A DNA stretch of 54,800 nt from Candidatus Siliceabacter maunaloa (GCA_024330185.1 JANDLV010000026.1:1-54800); one strand, 5' to 3'. Positions 10,079 through 16,920 are shown, counted from the stretch's first letter. The notes: a model not told the origin generated them from the sequence alone. Numbers and translations are program-made.

Positions 10079-12394
10079 TCAGCAGGTGGTGGGCGAGTTG
10101 CCGCCCGCGGCGTCGCGCGCGCGGTTGTACTCGGCGGCGTCCTGCTGGAACTGGGCGTCGGAGTTGGAGAAATTGTGCTCGCCGCAGGTGCCGGGCTTGA
10201 CCACGTAGTAGAGGAAGTCCTCGTCGGCCGGGTTGGCGGCGGCCTCGATCGAGGCCAGGCCCGGGTTGCCGATCGGCGTGGGCGGCAGGCCGGTACGGGT
10301 GCGCGTGTTGTACGGACCGTCCTCCTGCAGCTCGCTCTGCTTGAGCGGGCTGTCCCAGTTGTCGTTGGCGTAGCGGATCGTCGCGTCGATGCCCAGCGGC
10401 ATGCCGTCCGAGAGACGGTTGTAGATGACGGCGGCGACCAGGCGGCGCTCCTCGGGAACGCTCGTCTCGCGCTCGACCATGGAGGCTACGACGAGCACCT
10501 CGTAGGGCGTGAGGTTGCCCTCCTCCGCCTTGGTGAGGTCGACCTCGGCGAAGTTCTCCTGGAAGGCCTCGAGCTGGTCGGCGACGAGGTCCTCGGCGTC
10601 GGCGTCCGCGGCCAGCTCGTAGGTGGCCGGGAAGAGGAAGCCCTCCAGCGTGTCGGTGCCCTCGGGCGCGTCGAAGTCGCCGCGCGGGCTGAAGCCCTCG
10701 AATGACTCCGAGGCGTCCTCGTAGTCGCCCTCGATCCCGGCCTCCTCCACGATGGGGGCGATCTCGCCGCGCGAGAGGCCCTCGGGGATGACCACGTCGA
10801 CCACGTCGGTCGGGCCGGCGTCGGTCGGGGGAGTGGAGATCGCTGTGATCGCCGAGGAGTAGGACATGCCCTGGCGCAGGTCGTGGGGCCCCGAGCGCAG
10901 CGCGGCGCCGTCGCCCGAGAGGGTGGCGCGTGCGCGGAAGAACAGGCCGGAGTCCACGACGCCCTCGTCGGCGAGGATGTCGCCGATCTCGCCGACGCTG
11001 GCGCCCTCGGGGATGGTCACCGCGACGGTGCCCTCGCCGTCGCCGCCGAGGGGCTGGAACAGGGCGGCCAGGAACCACACGACCGCGATGACCGGCGCGA
11101 GGAACAGGGCCAGGGCGAGCGGCCGGCGGCCACGGCGCGGCGGCGGCGCGGCGGCGGCGGCGGCAGGAGCGGCGGAGCTGGTCGCCGAGGCCGTGGCCGG
11201 GGGTGTGCCGGTGGTGGCGGCGTGCCCGCCGTTGCGCTTCGTGGCGCGACCGACGCCTGCAGCGCGACGGGCGGGCAGCGGCGGCGGGCCGGGGGCACGC
11301 GGCGGGCGCCGGGAGAAGCGGCCGCGGGCAGGCTCCTGCTCGGGCTCCGGCTCGGGCGACGAGGTGACGGGGTCGGGCGCCGGCTGGGGCTCAGGGGCGG
11401 GTGCGTGCTGCTGGACGTAGCCCTGGGCGGCGAACTCGCCGGTGGCCGCCTCGTCGTGCCACGCGAGATCGTCGTCGTGGCCCAGCTCGTCGTGGTAGCC
11501 GAGCTCGTCGTGGTGGCCCAGATCATCCGCCGGCCCTCCGATCGCCGGCGGGTGAGCGCTCGCGCCGTTGCCGTTGACGTCGTGCGTCGTGGTGGCAGCC
11601 GGCGGCGGGTCCCAGGGATCGCGCGCATCGTTCCGGCCATCATCGTGGTCCTCCCAGGCCTGCATGTCCTGTTCGTTCCACGCCTCCCGATCATCCTCCT
11701 GCGCCACGTCCCACGCGGCGGTCGACTGCGCGACGTCCTCGTGGACCGGCGCAGCGGGCGAGGGAGTGCCCGCGTAGCGGCCCACCGGCTCGGGAACCGG
11801 TTCGGCGCTGCGCACGGGCGCCTCACGCCGGGGGGCCGGGAAGGGCTCCTCCCGGGGAGGCACGATGGGCTCCTCGCGAGGCGGCACGACAGGCTCCTCA
11901 CGGGGCCGCGCGACAGGCTCCTCGCGAGGCGGCACGACAGGCTCCTCACGGGGCGGCACGACAGGCTCCTCGCGAGGCGGCACGACAGGCTCCTCACGGG
12001 GCGGCACGACAGGCTCCTCACGGGGCCGCGCGACAGGCTCCTCGCGGGGCGGCGCGACAGGCTCCTCGCGGGGCGGCGCGACAGGCTCCTCACGGGGCCG
12101 CGCGACAGGCTCCTCACGGGGCCGCGCGACAGGCTCCTCGCGGGGCGGCACGACAGGCTCCTCACTCCGCGGCGCAGCCGTCGGCTCCTCGCGGCGCTGG
12201 GATGGCACGGACTCGGCGCGGGGGCTCTCGCTGCGCGGCGCGGGCGCGGGCGCGGGCGGCGCCGGCTCGCCGAAGTCGGGTGGCGGCTCGCCGCGGCGGG
12301 CGGCGCGCTGCGCCTCGCGGGCGCGACGGGCGGCCTCGCGCTCCTCGGTCGAACGCGCGCGCGGAGCTTCCTCCCTGCTGCCGAAGAGGCCCAT
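10079..12394 (-). CDS. mltG: MltG-type endolytic murein transglycosylase with long repeat-rich N-terminus
   Basis: 771 residues, about twice the usual MltG length. Residues ~1-420 are a cytoplasmic low-complexity region with a run of EEPVxPPR repeats (see repeat entry) and acidic/His-rich stretches (DDLGHHDELGYHDELG). One membrane segment follows (LALALFLAPVIAVVWFLAAL), then the extracellular YceG domain with MVERETSVPEERRLVAAV, whose Glu is the catalytic residue, and TRTGLPPTPIGNPG near the end. MltG cuts nascent peptidoglycan and sets glycan strand length. The ATG at 12394 is chosen because a TACGCT -10 box sits 8 bases upstream; an in-frame GTG at 12415 is the alternative. It lies between ruvX and aroE, the common actinobacterial order. 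Confidence 0.88.
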   Translation of the reverse strand: MGLFGSREEAPRARSTEEREAARRAREAQRAARRGEPPPDFGEPAPPAPAPAPRSESPRAESVPSQRREEPTAAPRSEEPVVPPREEPVARPREEPVARPREEPVAPPREEPVAPPREEPVARPREEPVVPPREEPVVPPREEPVVPPREEPVVPPREEPVARPREEPVVPPREEPIVPPREEPFPAPRREAPVRSAEPVPEPVGRYAGTPSPAAPVHEDVAQSTAAWDVAQEDDREAWNEQDMQAWEDHDDGRNDARDPWDPPPAATTTHDVNGNGASAHPPAIGGPADDLGHHDELGYHDELGHDDDLAWHDEAATGEFAAQGYVQQHAPAPEPQPAPDPVTSSPEPEPEQEPARGRFSRRPPRAPGPPPLPARRAAGVGRATKRNGGHAATTGTPPATASATSSAAPAAAAAAPPPRRGRRPLALALFLAPVIAVVWFLAALFQPLGGDGEGTVAVTIPEGASVGEIGDILADEGVVDSGLFFRARATLSGDGAALRSGPHDLRQGMSYSSAITAISTPPTDAGPTDVVDVVIPEGLSRGEIAPIVEEAGIEGDYEDASESFEGFSPRGDFDAPEGTDTLEGFLFPATYELAADADAEDLVADQLEAFQENFAEVDLTKAEEGNLTPYEVLVVASMVERETSVPEERRLVAAVIYNRLSDGMPLGIDATIRYANDNWDSPLKQSELQEDGPYNTRTRTGLPPTPIGNPGLASIEAAANPADEDFLYYVVKPGTCGEHNFSNSDAQFQQDAAEYNRARDAAGGNSPTTC
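11852..12163 (-). repeat. 24-bp tandem repeat (13 units) inside mltG
   Basis: Thirteen consecutive 24-base units encode EEP-[VI]-x-x-P-R with VVPP, VAPP, VARP or IVPP variants; degenerate units flank both ends. The repeat keeps the frame, so copy number can change without breaking the gene. It lies in the predicted cytoplasmic tail. Confidence 0.9.
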
Positions 12395-12402
12395 GGCCGA
12401 CC

Positions 12403-12408
12403 AGCGTA
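12403..12408 (-). promoter_or_regulatory. Probable -10 box before mltG
   Basis: On the minus strand TACGCT ends 8 bases before the mltG ATG (12394), inside the ruvX-mltG gap. It would give mltG its own leaderless transcript in addition to read-through from ruvX. Confidence 0.4.
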
Positions 12409-12455
12409 GCGACACGGCGCCCTCGGTCGACGTGCCGGCGAACTGTCACGCACGC

Positions 12456-12851
12456 TCACCGGGCCCGCGCGAGCCATCCCTCCAGGAGGTGCGCCGCGGC
12501 GCGGGAGTCCTCGTCGCCGCGCGCGCCCACGGGGTCGCGCTGGGCCATCCGGGTCGTGTAGCGCTCGTCCTCCAGGTCGACGGACACCCGCTTGCCCAGC
12601 CGCCGCGCGAGCGCGCCCGCGAACGCTCGCGCGGCGCGCGCCTGGGCGCTCTCACCGCCGTCCAGCGACGTCGGCAGGCCCACGACGACACGCTCGACCT
12701 CCCGCTCGCGCACAAGCGCGGCGATCGCGTCGAGTCCCCGGCCGCTGTCGGGCCTGTCGATCACCGCCAGCGGCGTGGCCAGCGTGCCGGTCGGGTCGCT
12801 CACCGCGACCCCGCAGCGCGCGCGGCCGTGGTCGAGGGCGAGCACCCTCAC
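12456..12851 (-). CDS. ruvX: Putative pre-16S rRNA nuclease / Holliday junction resolvase-like YqgF
   Basis: 131 residues with the YqgF/RuvX RNase H-like fold: VRVLALDHGRARCGVAVSDP at the N-terminus (first catalytic Asp), VERVVVGLPTSLDG in the middle, VDLEDERYTT (second acidic motif) and DEDSRAAAHLLEGWL at the end. The family processes the 5' end of 16S rRNA. The GTG start at 12851 overlaps the alaS stop in a GTGA four-base overlap, a sign of translational coupling and the usual alaS-ruvX-mltG arrangement. Confidence 0.9.
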   Translation of the reverse strand: MRVLALDHGRARCGVAVSDPTGTLATPLAVIDRPDSGRGLDAIAALVREREVERVVVGLPTSLDGGESAQARAARAFAGALARRLGKRVSVDLEDERYTTRMAQRDPVGARGDEDSRAAAHLLEGWLARAR

Positions 12852-15490
12852 CCGGCACCCAGCGCGGCCTCGATCGCCGCGCGAGCGGCCGCGAGAGCAT
12901 CGGGCAGCTTGTCGGGGTCGCGGCCGCCGGCCTGGGCCATCGTGTCGCGTCCCCCGCCTCCGCCGCCGGCCACCTGGGCGGCGGCCCTGACGACCGCGCC
13001 GGCCTTGACGCCGCGTTCCACGAGCGCCGGTGCGACCGCGGCGACCAAGTGCACGCGGGTGGGTGGGCCCGGGTTCACGCTGCCCAGCACGACCGCCGCG
13101 TCGCCAAGCTTGCCCTTCACGCGGTCGGCGAGGTCCATCAGCGCCTTGGGGTCCCCTCCGGGCACCGCCTCGGCCAGCACCCGCGCGCCGGCGATCTCGA
13201 CGGCACGCCCCGCCAGCTCGGCGAGATCCACCGCGCCGTTGGCACCCGACGGCCGCCGGCGCGCCTCCTTGAGCTGGGCCCGCAGGTCGCTCACGCGCGC
13301 GGGCACGTCCTCGACGGCGCTTCGCACCGCTCCCGCCGCCTGGACGAGCAGGTCGTCGTGGTGGCGCAGCAGCGCGACGGCGGCCGGGCCGGTCAGGGCC
13401 TCGACCCGGCGCACGTTCGCCGCGCTCGAGCCTTCGGAGGTGAGCTTGAACAGCCCGATCTCCGCGGTGGAGCGCACGTGGGTGCCGCCGCACAGCTCGC
13501 GTGAGTAAGAGCCGTCGCCGACCTCGACCATGCGCACCACGTCGCCGTACTTCTCGCCGAACAGCGCCATCGCGCCCAGGGCACGCGCCTCCTCCAGCGT
13601 GGTCTCCAGGGCGCGGACGCGGTCGTTGCGCAGGATCCATTCGTTGACCATGTCCTCGACCTGCCGGCGCTCGGCGTCGCCCAGCGCCCCGCCGTGGGTG
13701 AAGTCGAAGCGCAGCTTGTCGGGGCCCACGTGGGAGCCGGCCTGGCGGACGTGGTCACCCAGCACGCGGCGCAGCGCCGCGTGCAGCAGGTGGGTGGCCG
13801 TGTGGTTGCACTCGGTTGCGTGGCGCGCGTGCGCGTCGACACGGGCGACGACGCGCTCGCCGGCGCGCAGCGCCCCCTCCAGCAGCTCGATGACGACTGC
13901 CTGGTCGTCACCGACACGCAGCACGTCGGCCACCGTCGCGCGGCAATCGCGGCCCTCGCACGTGATCTCGCCCGTGTCGGAGACCTGTCCGCCGCCCGCG
14001 GCGTAGAACGGGGACTCGGCCAGCTTGATCAGCACGCTGCCGTCGTGCTCGCCCACCGAAGCGACCGTCGAGTGCTGCTCGAGCACCTCGTAGCCGGTGA
14101 AGGCACTGGGAGGGGCGGGCGGGCTCAATTCCACGACGGTGACGGCCGCGTGGACGCGACCGCCCGCCGCGCGGGCCCGCGCACGCTGCTCGTCCATGCG
14201 CGTCTCGAAGCCCTCCTCGTCCACCCCCAGGCCCCGCTCGGCCACCAGCTCCCTCGTGAGGTCGAAGGGAAAGCCGTGGGTGTCGTGGAGGGCGAAGGCG
14301 TCGTCGGCCGCGATGCCCTCGGCGCCCTGCTCGCGTGCGCGCTCGATGAGCTCCTCCATGCGCCGGGTGCCCTGGTCCAGCGTGCGCGTGAAGGACTCCT
14401 CCTCCCCACGGACCCAGCGGTCGATCGCCGCCCACTCGCGGTCGAGCTCGGGGTATGCGCCGCCCATCAGCTCGCGCACCCGCTGCGCGAAGGCGATGAG
14501 GAAGCCTGGCTCGAAGCCCAGGCGCCGGCCCTGGAAGATGGCCCGGCGCATGATGCGACGCAGTACGTAGCCGCGATCCTCGTTGGAGGGAACGACGCCG
14601 TCGGCGATGAGGAAGGTCATCCCGCGCGTGTGGTCGGCCAGGATGCGCAGCGCGCGGTCGCTGGCCTCGTCGGCGCCGTAGCGCCGGCCACTGCGCTGCG
14701 CTCCCAGCTCGATCAGCGGCTTGAACTGGTCGGTCTCGAAGACGGAGGGCGTGTCCTGCAGGATGGCGGCGAGGCGGTTGAGGCCCAGCCCGGTGTCGAT
14801 GTTGCTGGCCGGCAGGGGCGTGAGAGTGTTGGGCGGGGCGGGTGGTCCTTCTTGGTGATAGGTCATGAAGACGAGGTTCCAGAACTCCAGGAAGCGGTCG
14901 TTGTCGCCGCCGGGCAGGTCGTCGGGCGCGCCGAAGGCCACGCCGCGGTCGAGGTAGAGCTCGGAGGACGGGCCGCACGGACCGGTGTCCCCGGCCTGCC
15001 AGAAGTTCTCGCTGCGCGGCAGCAGCACGATGCGCTCGCGCGGGAAGCCGATCGACCGCCAGGCCTCGATGGCCTCCTCGTCGGGGCCCAGATCCAGCTC
15101 GTCGTCGCCCGCGAAGACCGTGACCCAGATCTTCTCGGGGTCGAAGCCGAAGCCCTGGGTGGAGAGCTCCCAGGCGAACTCGATGGCGCCCTGCTTGAAG
15201 TAGTCGCCCACCGAGAAGTTGCCCAGCATCTCGAAGCAGGTGAGGTGGCGGGCGGTGACGCCGATGTTGTCGATGTCGACCGCGCGGAAGCACTTCTGGC
15301 ACGAGGTCAGTCGCGGATGCGGCGGACGCTCCCGACCCTGGAAGTAGGGCTTGAGAGGCTGCATGCCCGCGGTGGTCAGCAGCACCGAGGGGTCGAAGGC
15401 GGCGGGCACCAGCGAGGCCGAGGGCAGCCGCCGGTGATCGCGCTCCTCGAAGAAGTGCAGATAGGTCTCGCGGATCTCGTCGGAGGTCAT
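12848..15490 (-). CDS. alaS: Alanine-tRNA ligase
   Basis: 880 residues, the normal length for bacterial AlaRS. The class II catalytic core is at the N-terminus (EIRETYLHFFEERDHRRLPS, LTTAGMQPLKPYF, TSCQKCFRAVDIDNIG), followed by the tRNA-recognition helices, the editing domain with ECNHTATHLLHAALR and SRELCGGTHVRSTAEIG (zinc-binding His/Cys residues), and the C-Ala region with a glycine-rich stretch (AQVAGGGGGGRDTMAQAGG). It charges tRNA-Ala. The ATG overlaps the mnmA stop (ATGA at 15487-15490) and its stop overlaps ruvX, so the three genes are tightly coupled. Confidence 0.97.
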   Translation of the reverse strand: MTSDEIRETYLHFFEERDHRRLPSASLVPAAFDPSVLLTTAGMQPLKPYFQGRERPPHPRLTSCQKCFRAVDIDNIGVTARHLTCFEMLGNFSVGDYFKQGAIEFAWELSTQGFGFDPEKIWVTVFAGDDELDLGPDEEAIEAWRSIGFPRERIVLLPRSENFWQAGDTGPCGPSSELYLDRGVAFGAPDDLPGGDNDRFLEFWNLVFMTYHQEGPPAPPNTLTPLPASNIDTGLGLNRLAAILQDTPSVFETDQFKPLIELGAQRSGRRYGADEASDRALRILADHTRGMTFLIADGVVPSNEDRGYVLRRIMRRAIFQGRRLGFEPGFLIAFAQRVRELMGGAYPELDREWAAIDRWVRGEEESFTRTLDQGTRRMEELIERAREQGAEGIAADDAFALHDTHGFPFDLTRELVAERGLGVDEEGFETRMDEQRARARAAGGRVHAAVTVVELSPPAPPSAFTGYEVLEQHSTVASVGEHDGSVLIKLAESPFYAAGGGQVSDTGEITCEGRDCRATVADVLRVGDDQAVVIELLEGALRAGERVVARVDAHARHATECNHTATHLLHAALRRVLGDHVRQAGSHVGPDKLRFDFTHGGALGDAERRQVEDMVNEWILRNDRVRALETTLEEARALGAMALFGEKYGDVVRMVEVGDGSYSRELCGGTHVRSTAEIGLFKLTSEGSSAANVRRVEALTGPAAVALLRHHDDLLVQAAGAVRSAVEDVPARVSDLRAQLKEARRRPSGANGAVDLAELAGRAVEIAGARVLAEAVPGGDPKALMDLADRVKGKLGDAAVVLGSVNPGPPTRVHLVAAVAPALVERGVKAGAVVRAAAQVAGGGGGGRDTMAQAGGRDPDKLPDALAAARAAIEAALGAG

Positions 15491-16920
15491 GGCGCTGCGA
15501 TCGTCGCGCAACCCACGACGGCATCGCCGGCCAGGAAGACCGCGGTCTGCCCGGGGGCGGCGCCGTCGAAGGGCTCGTCGAGATGCAGGACGTCCTCCTT
15601 CAGGCGGCAGGGAACCGCCCTGGTGGCGTAGCGCAGCTTCACGGCGTCGGGGATGGCGTGGACGCTGGCGTCGCGCACGCGGACGGTCTGCGTCGCGAGC
15701 TGGTCGCGCGGGCCGACGGTCACCGTGTTGGCGTCGGCGTCGGTGGCCAGCACGTAGAGCGGCTCGGGCCCGGCGACGCCGATGCCGCGGCGCTGGCCGA
15801 CGGTGAACTGGTGGTGGCCGCGGTGGCGCCCCAGGCGCCGGCCGGCGCGGTCGACGATGTCGCCGGGACGCTCGCGCAGGTTGGCGTGGCGGGCCAGGAA
15901 GGCGGTTCGGCCGGTGCCGGCCAGGAAGCAGAGATCCTGCGAGTCTCGCTTGTCTGCCACCGGGAGGTCGTGCTCGCGGGCCAGCGCGCGGACCTGCGGC
16001 TTGGTCAGCTCGCCGAGGGGAAAGCGCAGCCGCCCGAGCGTCCGGGGGGCCACCGCGGCGAGCATGTAGGTCTGGTCCTTGGCCGGGTCGGCGGCGAGCC
16101 TGAGGAGGCCGTCGCGCGTACGCGCGTAATGGCCGGTGGCCAGGGTGGCCGCGCCGAGGCGGTCGCCGAGCTCGAGCATCCCGTCCAGGCGCACATGGCC
16201 GTTGCAGCGCACACAGGGGTTGGGCGTCAGGCCCGCTGCGTGGTCGACGAGGTAGGGCTCCACGACGCCCGCGCGGAACTCCGCGCGCAGGTCCAGCGTG
16301 AAGTGCGGGAGACCGAGGCGGTGCGCGAGCGCGCGCGCGCAGCGCACCGCGCTCGCCGAGCAGCACGAGGACTCGGCGTCGTTGGCCGGGTCGCGCCAGA
16401 GCTCGAGGGTGACGGCGGCGACACGGGGCGGCTCGCCCGCCGGGCGTGAGGCCGGCGGCGGCTTGCCCCGCGCGCACAGCAGCGCGGCCACCGCGCTGTC
16501 CACGCCGCCGCTCATGGCGACGAGCGTGCGGTCCGCGACCAGCTCGCGCGGTGGGGCGGCGCGGACGGCGTCGCCCAGCGCACGGTGGAGGGCGTCGGCG
16601 ACGAGGTCGGCTGCGTGGAACTTGCCCGCGGTGAGGCCGCCCAGCTCGTCGGCGATGGCGTGGGCGCCGACGCGGGCGGCGTCGAGGACGTCTCGGTGTT
16701 CGACGAGCGTGACCGCAGCGCTGGCCGCCGCGGTCAGCGCGCCGCAGCCGGCGGCCTCGAAGCGTGCTGTGGCGACGCAGCCGTGCTCCAAGACGATCCC
16801 GACTGTGACCAGGTCGCCGCAGGGGGCGCCGCCCGCGGCGCCCACGTGGGCGGCGGCGGCGCCCTCGATCCCGCGCCCCGCGGGGCGCTCGAGGTGCTCG
16901 GCGAAGCGCTCGTCGGCCAT
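15487..16920 (-). CDS. mnmA: tRNA 2-thiouridylase MnmA with N-terminal NifU/IscU-like domain
   Basis: 477 residues, ~110 longer than ordinary MnmA. Residues ~1-120 resemble the Fe-S scaffold fold of NifU/IscU: APCGD (Cys34), AAGCGAL (Cys59), but the third scaffold cysteine position reads GKFHAADL, so that Cys is absent. The MnmA part then has the PP-loop SGGVDS (137-142), SCCSASAV, the catalytic NPCVRCN (Cys236) and DSQDLCFLAG (second catalytic Cys). MnmA makes the s2U34 modification of tRNA-Lys, -Glu and -Gln with ATP and a relayed sulfur. The fused domain may help sulfur delivery or hold a cluster; that is inference. First gene of the minus-strand run. Confidence 0.9.
   Translation of the reverse strand: MADERFAEHLERPAGRGIEGAAAAHVGAAGGAPCGDLVTVGIVLEHGCVATARFEAAGCGALTAAASAAVTLVEHRDVLDAARVGAHAIADELGGLTAGKFHAADLVADALHRALGDAVRAAPPRELVADRTLVAMSGGVDSAVAALLCARGKPPPASRPAGEPPRVAAVTLELWRDPANDAESSCCSASAVRCARALAHRLGLPHFTLDLRAEFRAGVVEPYLVDHAAGLTPNPCVRCNGHVRLDGMLELGDRLGAATLATGHYARTRDGLLRLAADPAKDQTYMLAAVAPRTLGRLRFPLGELTKPQVRALAREHDLPVADKRDSQDLCFLAGTGRTAFLARHANLRERPGDIVDRAGRRLGRHRGHHQFTVGQRRGIGVAGPEPLYVLATDADANTVTVGPRDQLATQTVRVRDASVHAIPDAVKLRYATRAVPCRLKEDVLHLDEPFDGAAPGQTAVFLAGDAVVGCATIAAP

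What the first reader, a model, noticed from the sequence alone, without database searches (positions are those of the whole stretch)
15487..16920. NifU-like domain fused to MnmA, with one scaffold cysteine missing
The first ~120 residues fit the IscU/NifU fold with CGD and GCGA cysteines, but the third Cys site reads FHAADL. MnmA itself is complete. Some tRNA thiolases bind an Fe-S cluster, so a built-in, altered scaffold could feed sulfur or carry a cluster with a His ligand. Known facts are the two families; the mechanism is inference.
Basis: partly seen in the sequence, partly recalled or inferred. Interest (0 to 1): 0.6.

Follow-up and report, generated by a model that had tools for sequence, protein, structure and literature searches.

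The report
tRNA thiolase with repurposed IscU domain
A bacterial enzyme that puts sulfur on tRNA carries, fused to its front, a copy of the protein that normally builds iron-sulfur clusters; across two groups of actinobacteria this copy has given up one key residue in a regular way, which suggests it was converted from a cluster builder into a built-in sulfur-delivery or docking part.

Summary
The gene at 15487-16920 (minus strand) encodes an IscU/NifU domain (residues 5-117) fused to a complete MnmA (130-476). The third scaffold cysteine is Ala103. This is a conserved lineage trait, not a local mutation. In Solirubrobacterales only C34, D36, C59, H102 and L96 are invariant in the domain, and position 103 is Ala (rarely Gly). 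The same fusion runs through the class and occurs in other actinobacterial families. Of 134 distinct full-length fused domains none keeps the five-residue IscU site; 115 keep C-D-C plus exactly one of the adjacent His or Cys. Separate NifU proteins encoded beside mnmA keep all five. The lost residue corresponds to the only persulfide acceptor of human ISCU2; the four kept residues are the resting metal site. The window's order has also lost IscS-class desulfurases, so sulfur probably comes from SufS. I read the domain as an in-cis desulfurase-docking and sulfur-acceptor module with a four-ligand, probably zinc, site (SufU-like), not an Fe-S scaffold. Fold and conservation are shown; metal, partner and sulfur transfer are inferred. 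I found no published description. The distance from Cys34/59/His102 to the MnmA site could not be measured: no coordinates were returned.

The parts
15487..16920 (-). Gene for the NifU(IscU)-MnmA fusion protein, 477 aa (P0001)
16570..16908 (-). NifU_N/IscU-like domain, residues 5-117
16819..16821 (-). Cys34 (IscU C37 / SufU C41 position), invariant
16813..16815 (-). Asp36 (IscU D39 position), invariant
16744..16746 (-). Cys59 (IscU C63 position), invariant
16615..16617 (-). His102 (IscU H105 position), invariant in the order; Lys in SufU
16612..16614 (-). Ala103 in place of the third scaffold Cys (IscU C106, ISCU2 C138)
15493..16533 (-). MnmA moiety, residues 130-476, PP-loop SGGVDS at 137-142
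16360..16365 (-). Cys186-Cys187, first motif of C-type MnmA (CC-CxxC-C)
   Evidence: nearly invariant; motif definition PMC11784392
16204..16215 (-). Cys236-x-x-Cys239, MnmA active-site CxxC
   Evidence: invariant
15928..15930 (-). Cys331, MnmA catalytic Cys (E. coli C199 position)
   Evidence: invariant; alignment to 2der
12848..15490 (-). alaS, start codon overlapping the mnmA stop by 4 nt; conserved downstream neighbour

Best explanation
The protein is a C-type MnmA (tRNA U34 2-thiouridylase) with an IscU-derived N-terminal domain taken in from an iscS-nifU-mnmA gene cluster. Freed from building Fe-S clusters, the domain now works in cis as the docking and sulfur-acceptor module between a cysteine desulfurase and the MnmA active site. 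SHOWN here: fold, fusion, class-wide conservation, the four invariant site residues C34/D36/C59/H102, regular loss of one of the two adjacent residues H105/C106, and absence of IscS-class desulfurases in the window's order. INFERRED: the four residues hold one metal, most likely Zn; the partner is SufS, the only housekeeping desulfurase found in the genome; when SufS docks, its conserved His takes over the place of C34 on the metal, as in SufU-SufS, and C34 accepts the persulfide and passes it to MnmA C239/C331 or to a cluster held there. The weaker form of the claim, likelier than the C34 step, is that the domain docks the desulfurase and sulfur then goes straight to MnmA. My confidence covers 'docking and/or sulfur relay, not a scaffold'; for C34 as acceptor it is about 0.35.
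For: Only C34, D36, C59, H102 and L96 are invariant among 56 distinct Solirubrobacterales sequences. Site states: fused 0/134 five-residue, 115/134 C-D-C plus exactly one of His/Cys; unfused neighbours 8/9 full CDCHC, the ninth cut by the end of the fetched stretch. iscS-nifU-mnmA stand as three adjacent genes in class family f6, and iscS still adjoins the fusion in f10, f11 and family f23. No IscS-class enzyme in the 60 nearest relatives; the window genome's one such hit is DndA-like beside a dndB-like gene. The window genome has SufB, SufD, SufS and SufU on contig C28 and no TusA. Its SufS carries the VHPHD motif that aligns by eye with the Zn-swapping His354 of M. tuberculosis SufS (PMC10216065). 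Human ISCU2 binds Fe2+ through C69, D71, C95 and H137, and C138, the residue lost here, is the sole persulfide acceptor (PMC11021402). SufS feeds MnmA in the Plasmodium apicoplast (PMC10219651).
Against: No metal, complex or sulfur transfer has been measured. Families f7 (about 65-residue remnant, mostly without Cys), f9, f12, f16 and f72 have lost the site, so a Cys-based relay cannot be common to all fusions; only docking or a structural role can. Family f23 keeps the same CDCHA site with an active-looking IscS next door, so the site is not tied to SufS. The distance between the two active sites is unknown. MnmA of B. subtilis takes sulfur from its desulfurase YrvO without an intermediate carrier (PMC11784392).
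Confidence: 0.6

Rival explanations
1. Cis Fe-S scaffold: the domain still binds a [2Fe-2S] or Fe2+ through C34, D36, C59 and H102 and loads or repairs the [4Fe-4S] cluster of the C-type MnmA.
For: The MnmA moiety has the CC-CxxC-C motif of cluster-binding MnmA (C186, C187, C236, C239, C331; PMC11784392, PMC8584467). The four kept residues are those that hold Fe2+ in free ISCU2 (PMC11021402).
Against: 0 of 134 fused domains keep the five-residue site and the ISCU2 persulfide acceptor is the residue lost. The genome carries SUF for cluster building. MnmA without any fusion is common in the phylum.
Confidence: 0.15
2. Purely structural or docking remnant: the domain holds the enzyme together or orients tRNA or the desulfurase, and its metal site only stabilises the fold.
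For: Site lost in f9, f12, f16 and f72; domain shrunk in f7, yet kept as part of MnmA. Zn is reported to matter for IscU stability (title of PMC4243993).
Against: In f1-f5 and f23 the four site residues are kept in 100 of 100 distinct rows while the rest of the domain varies (mean identity to canonical NifU 29-41%); a fold-only site would be expected to tolerate more change.
Confidence: 0.2
3. Regulatory sensor: the metal site senses Zn, Fe or oxidative stress and gates tRNA thiolation.
For: Site conserved but without the acceptor Cys.
Against: No direct evidence; operon context is alaS-ruvX-mltG, not metal or stress genes.
Confidence: 0.05

Closest known systems
IscU / NifU N-terminal domain (PF01592; A. 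fulgidus IscU 4eb5_C, human ISCU2)
   Same: Fold over the whole domain (Z 21.3, 136 residues, 2.3 A), C34/D36/C59/H102 at the scaffold positions, gene neighbourhood iscS-nifU-mnmA in relatives.
   Different: Third Cys replaced by Ala in the whole order; fused to MnmA; no IscS left in the order.
SufU, Zn-dependent sulfurtransferase
   Same: Same fold (Z 14.9 to 6jzv_D), a four-ligand site, would work with a SufS of the His-bearing kind; the f8/f10/f11/f55 fusions reach the same CDC-x-C set.
   Different: SufU keeps the third Cys and has Lys for His, and has a 21-23 aa insert (PMC10216065); the window protein has the opposite choice (His kept, Cys lost). The genome has its own separate SufU.
MnmA, C-type (CC-CxxC-C; T. 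thermophilus, M. tuberculosis)
   Same: All motifs and domains.
   Different: N-terminal IscU-like domain.
ThiI with a rhodanese domain (from general knowledge, not tested)
   Same: A sulfur-acceptor domain fused in cis to a PP-loop tRNA thiolase.
   Different: Unrelated acceptor fold, different tRNA position.

Membership tests
IscU Fe-S scaffold | IscU/NifU_N fold | tested here: met
IscU Fe-S scaffold | Three cysteines (C37, C63, C106) plus D39 and H105 | tested here: not met
   C106 position is Ala103; CDCHA in 65 of 66 distinct rows of the order, CDCHG in one
IscU Fe-S scaffold | Assembles and transfers [2Fe-2S] | not testable with these tools
   needs spectroscopy
IscU Fe-S scaffold | Partner IscS in the genome | tested here: not met
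   no IscS-class hit in the 60 nearest relatives; own genome only a DndA-like one; the genome is 95% complete
SufU Zn sulfurtransferase | C41, D43, C66, C128 ligand set with Lys before the last Cys | tested here: not met
   C34, D36, C59 present, but His102-Ala103 replaces Lys-Cys
SufU Zn sulfurtransferase | 21-23 aa insert between second and third Cys | tested here: not met
   the domain aligns to IscU/NifU without such an insert; SufU model only 20.5 bits against 59.0 for the NifU model
SufU Zn sulfurtransferase | Works with a SufS that carries the Zn-swapping His | tested here: inconclusive
   SufS of the genome has VHPHD; interaction not testable here
MnmA | PP-loop SGGVDS, catalytic cysteines, central and C-terminal domains | tested here: met
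   NF001138 305 bits against cut-off 284
C-type MnmA | CC-CxxC-C motif | tested here: met
   C186 C187, C236 C239, C331
C-type MnmA | Binds [4Fe-4S] | not testable with these tools
   known for T. thermophilus MnmA (PMC8584467)

The most novel reading that the evidence does not exclude
Fusion to MnmA turns an Fe-S scaffold into a built-in sulfur carrier: in at least two actinobacterial lineages the fused IscU domain has dropped exactly one of the two adjacent residues His105/Cys106, giving two four-ligand sites (C-D-C-H and C-D-C-C) that accept persulfide from the available desulfurase (IscS in f23, SufS in Solirubrobacterales) and hand it to the MnmA moiety in cis; this let the host lose its IscS.
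Probability: 0.3. Interest if true: 0.8.

Novelty: new variant of a known kind. Interest (0 to 1): 0.6.

Why it matters
How MnmA gets its sulfur outside E. coli and B. subtilis, and whether it needs an Fe-S cluster, is disputed (PMC11784392). These fusions give a single-chain system in which desulfurase docking and thiolation could be studied together, plus a natural series in one class: separate canonical NifU, fusion with iscS next door, fusion without IscS, and a shrunken remnant. They also offer a clean test of which of the five IscU site residues are needed for scaffolding and which for mere metal binding or sulfur acceptance.

Tried and rejected
(1) Sequencing or assembly artefact or chance Cys loss: rejected, the same state is in every relative. 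(2) Frameshifted gene pair read as one: rejected, open frame in dozens of genomes, though true adjacent pairs exist in f6 and f29. (3) Site loss as an adaptation to IscS loss: not supported as the cause, since f23 has CDCHA with iscS adjacent. (4) One single fusion event: the tree needs at least three changes and holding all fused rows in one clade gives p-AU 0.034, a marginal rejection on a quick tree; a second clade test did not finish. (5) Measuring Cys34/59/His102 to Cys236 in the model: impossible, coordinates are not returned. (8) Literature: searches for IscU/NifU with MnmA fusion found no report; the library lacks most subscription papers and all preprints.

Full report
WHAT IS THERE. 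The minus-strand ORF 15487-16920 encodes 477 residues. Residues 6-116 match NifU_N (E 5e-16) and 131-474 match the three MnmA domains; the NCBIfam MnmA equivalog scores above its cut-off, the NifU and IscU models match well below theirs. PDB relatives of the first 126 residues are IscU proteins (best A. fulgidus IscU, E 2e-16), with 'KFHAADL' aligned to 'KMHCSNL'. AlphaFold2 gives pLDDT 93.1 and pTM 0.92 for the whole chain, and the fold comparison gives Z 21.3 to A. fulgidus IscU, 18.6 to E. coli IscU, 14.9 to B. subtilis SufU and 35.0 to MnmA 2hma. The MnmA moiety keeps SGGVDS, C236-x-x-C239 and C331 and C186-C187 as invariant or nearly invariant residues, which is the CC-CxxC-C signature of C-type MnmA (definition in PMC11784392); C-type MnmA of T. 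thermophilus has a [4Fe-4S] cluster (PMC8584467). The mnmA stop overlaps the alaS start by 4 nt, and mnmA-alaS(-mltG) is a conserved order in relatives.

WHERE IT OCCURS. The nearest named relatives are Solirubrobacterales such as Svornostia, Solirubrobacter, Patulibacter and Conexibacter. Relatives in which both halves lie on one contig have the fusion. A class survey of 249 genomes and closer looks show a series. Families f10 and f11 have iscS directly before a fused nifU-mnmA. Families f1-f5, f8, f9 and f12 have the fusion without iscS near it in the loci read. Family f7 has about 65 residues left before MnmA, homologous to the NifU domain by profile comparison (probability 96.6%, E 7e-10), mostly without Cys (13 of 18 rows have none). 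In the rest of the phylum, f23 has iscS beside the fusion, f16, f55, f72 and f73 have fusions, and f29 has separate adjacent genes. An MnmA tree needs at least three changes of the fused state; one clade for all fused rows has p-AU 0.034, so more than one fusion event is likely but not firmly shown. The separate f6 group lies inside the fused Thermoleophilia part of the tree, so a split after fusion is also possible.

THE FOUR-OF-FIVE RULE. Lined up on the IscU site (C37, D39, C63, H105, C106), separate NifU neighbours read CDCHC in 8 of 9 distinct rows, the ninth being cut by the end of the stretch fetched. Distinct full-length fused domains read CDCHC in 0 of 134 (Fisher p 3e-12; relatedness makes this optimistic). 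In 115 of 134 the first three are kept together with exactly one of the last two: f1-f5 and f23 keep His and lose Cys (100 of 100), and f8 (6 of 8), f10, f11 and f55 lose His and keep Cys. The remainder, f9, f12, f16, f72, f73 and two rows of f8, have lost more. In 56 distinct Solirubrobacterales sequences the only invariant residues of the domain are C34, D36, C59, L96 and H102, while its identity to canonical NifU has fallen to about 31-34%. So in the window's lineage the site is under strong selection, but not as a five-residue scaffold.

WHAT THE LOST RESIDUE DOES. In human ISCU2 the free protein holds Fe2+ by C69, D71, C95 and H137, and C138 is the only residue that accepts persulfide from NFS1 (PMC11021402). 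The window protein keeps the exact counterparts of the first four and lacks the fifth. In SufU the acceptor is C40/C41, the counterpart of C34 here; it is freed when a His of SufS takes its place on the Zn (PMC10216065). A C-D-C-H site could work the SufU way with C34 as acceptor. It could not work the ISCU2 way.

THE SULFUR DONOR. The window genome has a SUF set on contig C28 (SufS, SufU, SufB, SufD), a second class V desulfurase beside a dndB-like gene, and no TusA match. None of the 60 nearest relatives has an IscS-class enzyme, only SufS-level matches. In class family f5 the single IscS-like protein has lost the PLP lysine in 10 of 10 sequences but keeps the catalytic Cys. So SufS is the likeliest donor; SufS is reported to serve both cluster assembly and MnmA in the Plasmodium apicoplast (PMC10219651). 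The SufS here has VHPHD, where M. tuberculosis SufS has the Zn-swapping His354 (placed by eye from the motif described in PMC10216065).

READING. The best-supported account is that an iscS-nifU-mnmA cluster gave rise to a NifU-MnmA fusion; the domain lost its scaffold role and kept, in most lineages, a four-ligand metal site used to dock a cysteine desulfurase and take or steer its sulfur to MnmA. Shown: fold, fusion, conservation, site rule, IscS loss. Inferred: metal identity, partner, sulfur path. The main weaknesses are the lineages that lost the site and the absence of any distance between the two active sites.

NOVELTY. IscU, SufU and MnmA are known; no report of this fusion was found, but the library is incomplete and domain databases may list the architecture. 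I rate it a new variant of a known kind.

Noticed in passing
L254 (G100:C8 134000-143000), L255 (G115:C10), L256 (G223:C103): A cysteine desulfurase of the IscS class is fused to the C-terminus of a molybdopterin oxidoreductase (Molybdop_Fe4S4, Molybdopterin, Molydop_binding, then Aminotran_5; Pfam run on the L254 frame only; the other two frames read alike). Formate-dehydrogenase-type enzymes need sulfur from IscS on their Mo cofactor (general knowledge), so this looks like a second in-cis sulfur supply fusion in the same class.
   Followed up: partly
L257-L264, L266, L267 (class family f5): IscS-like proteins that have lost the PLP-binding lysine (A/S/T/P instead) in 10 of 10 sequences but keep the catalytic Cys, His and Asp: a likely inactive desulfurase that may still carry or dock sulfur.
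   Followed up: partly
L113-L118, L138, L139, L217-L226 (class family f7): The NifU domain before MnmA is shrunk to about 65 residues and has mostly no Cys; the middle of the domain is deleted.
   Followed up: yes
Genome contig C56, L004 1444-3783: Class V cysteine desulfurase divergent from a DGQHR/DndB-like protein: a probable DNA phosphorothioation (dnd) locus in the window's genome (read from the sequence, not tested by a family search).
   Followed up: no
window 10079-12415 (-): mltG-like gene whose N-terminal half holds a long run of PREEPV(V/A) repeats.
   Followed up: no
L041 (CAMCUD010000010.1): Record titled Bifidobacterium breve MAG, but its mnmA region matches Solirubrobacterales (identical match figures to L012): the title looks wrong.
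   Followed up: no
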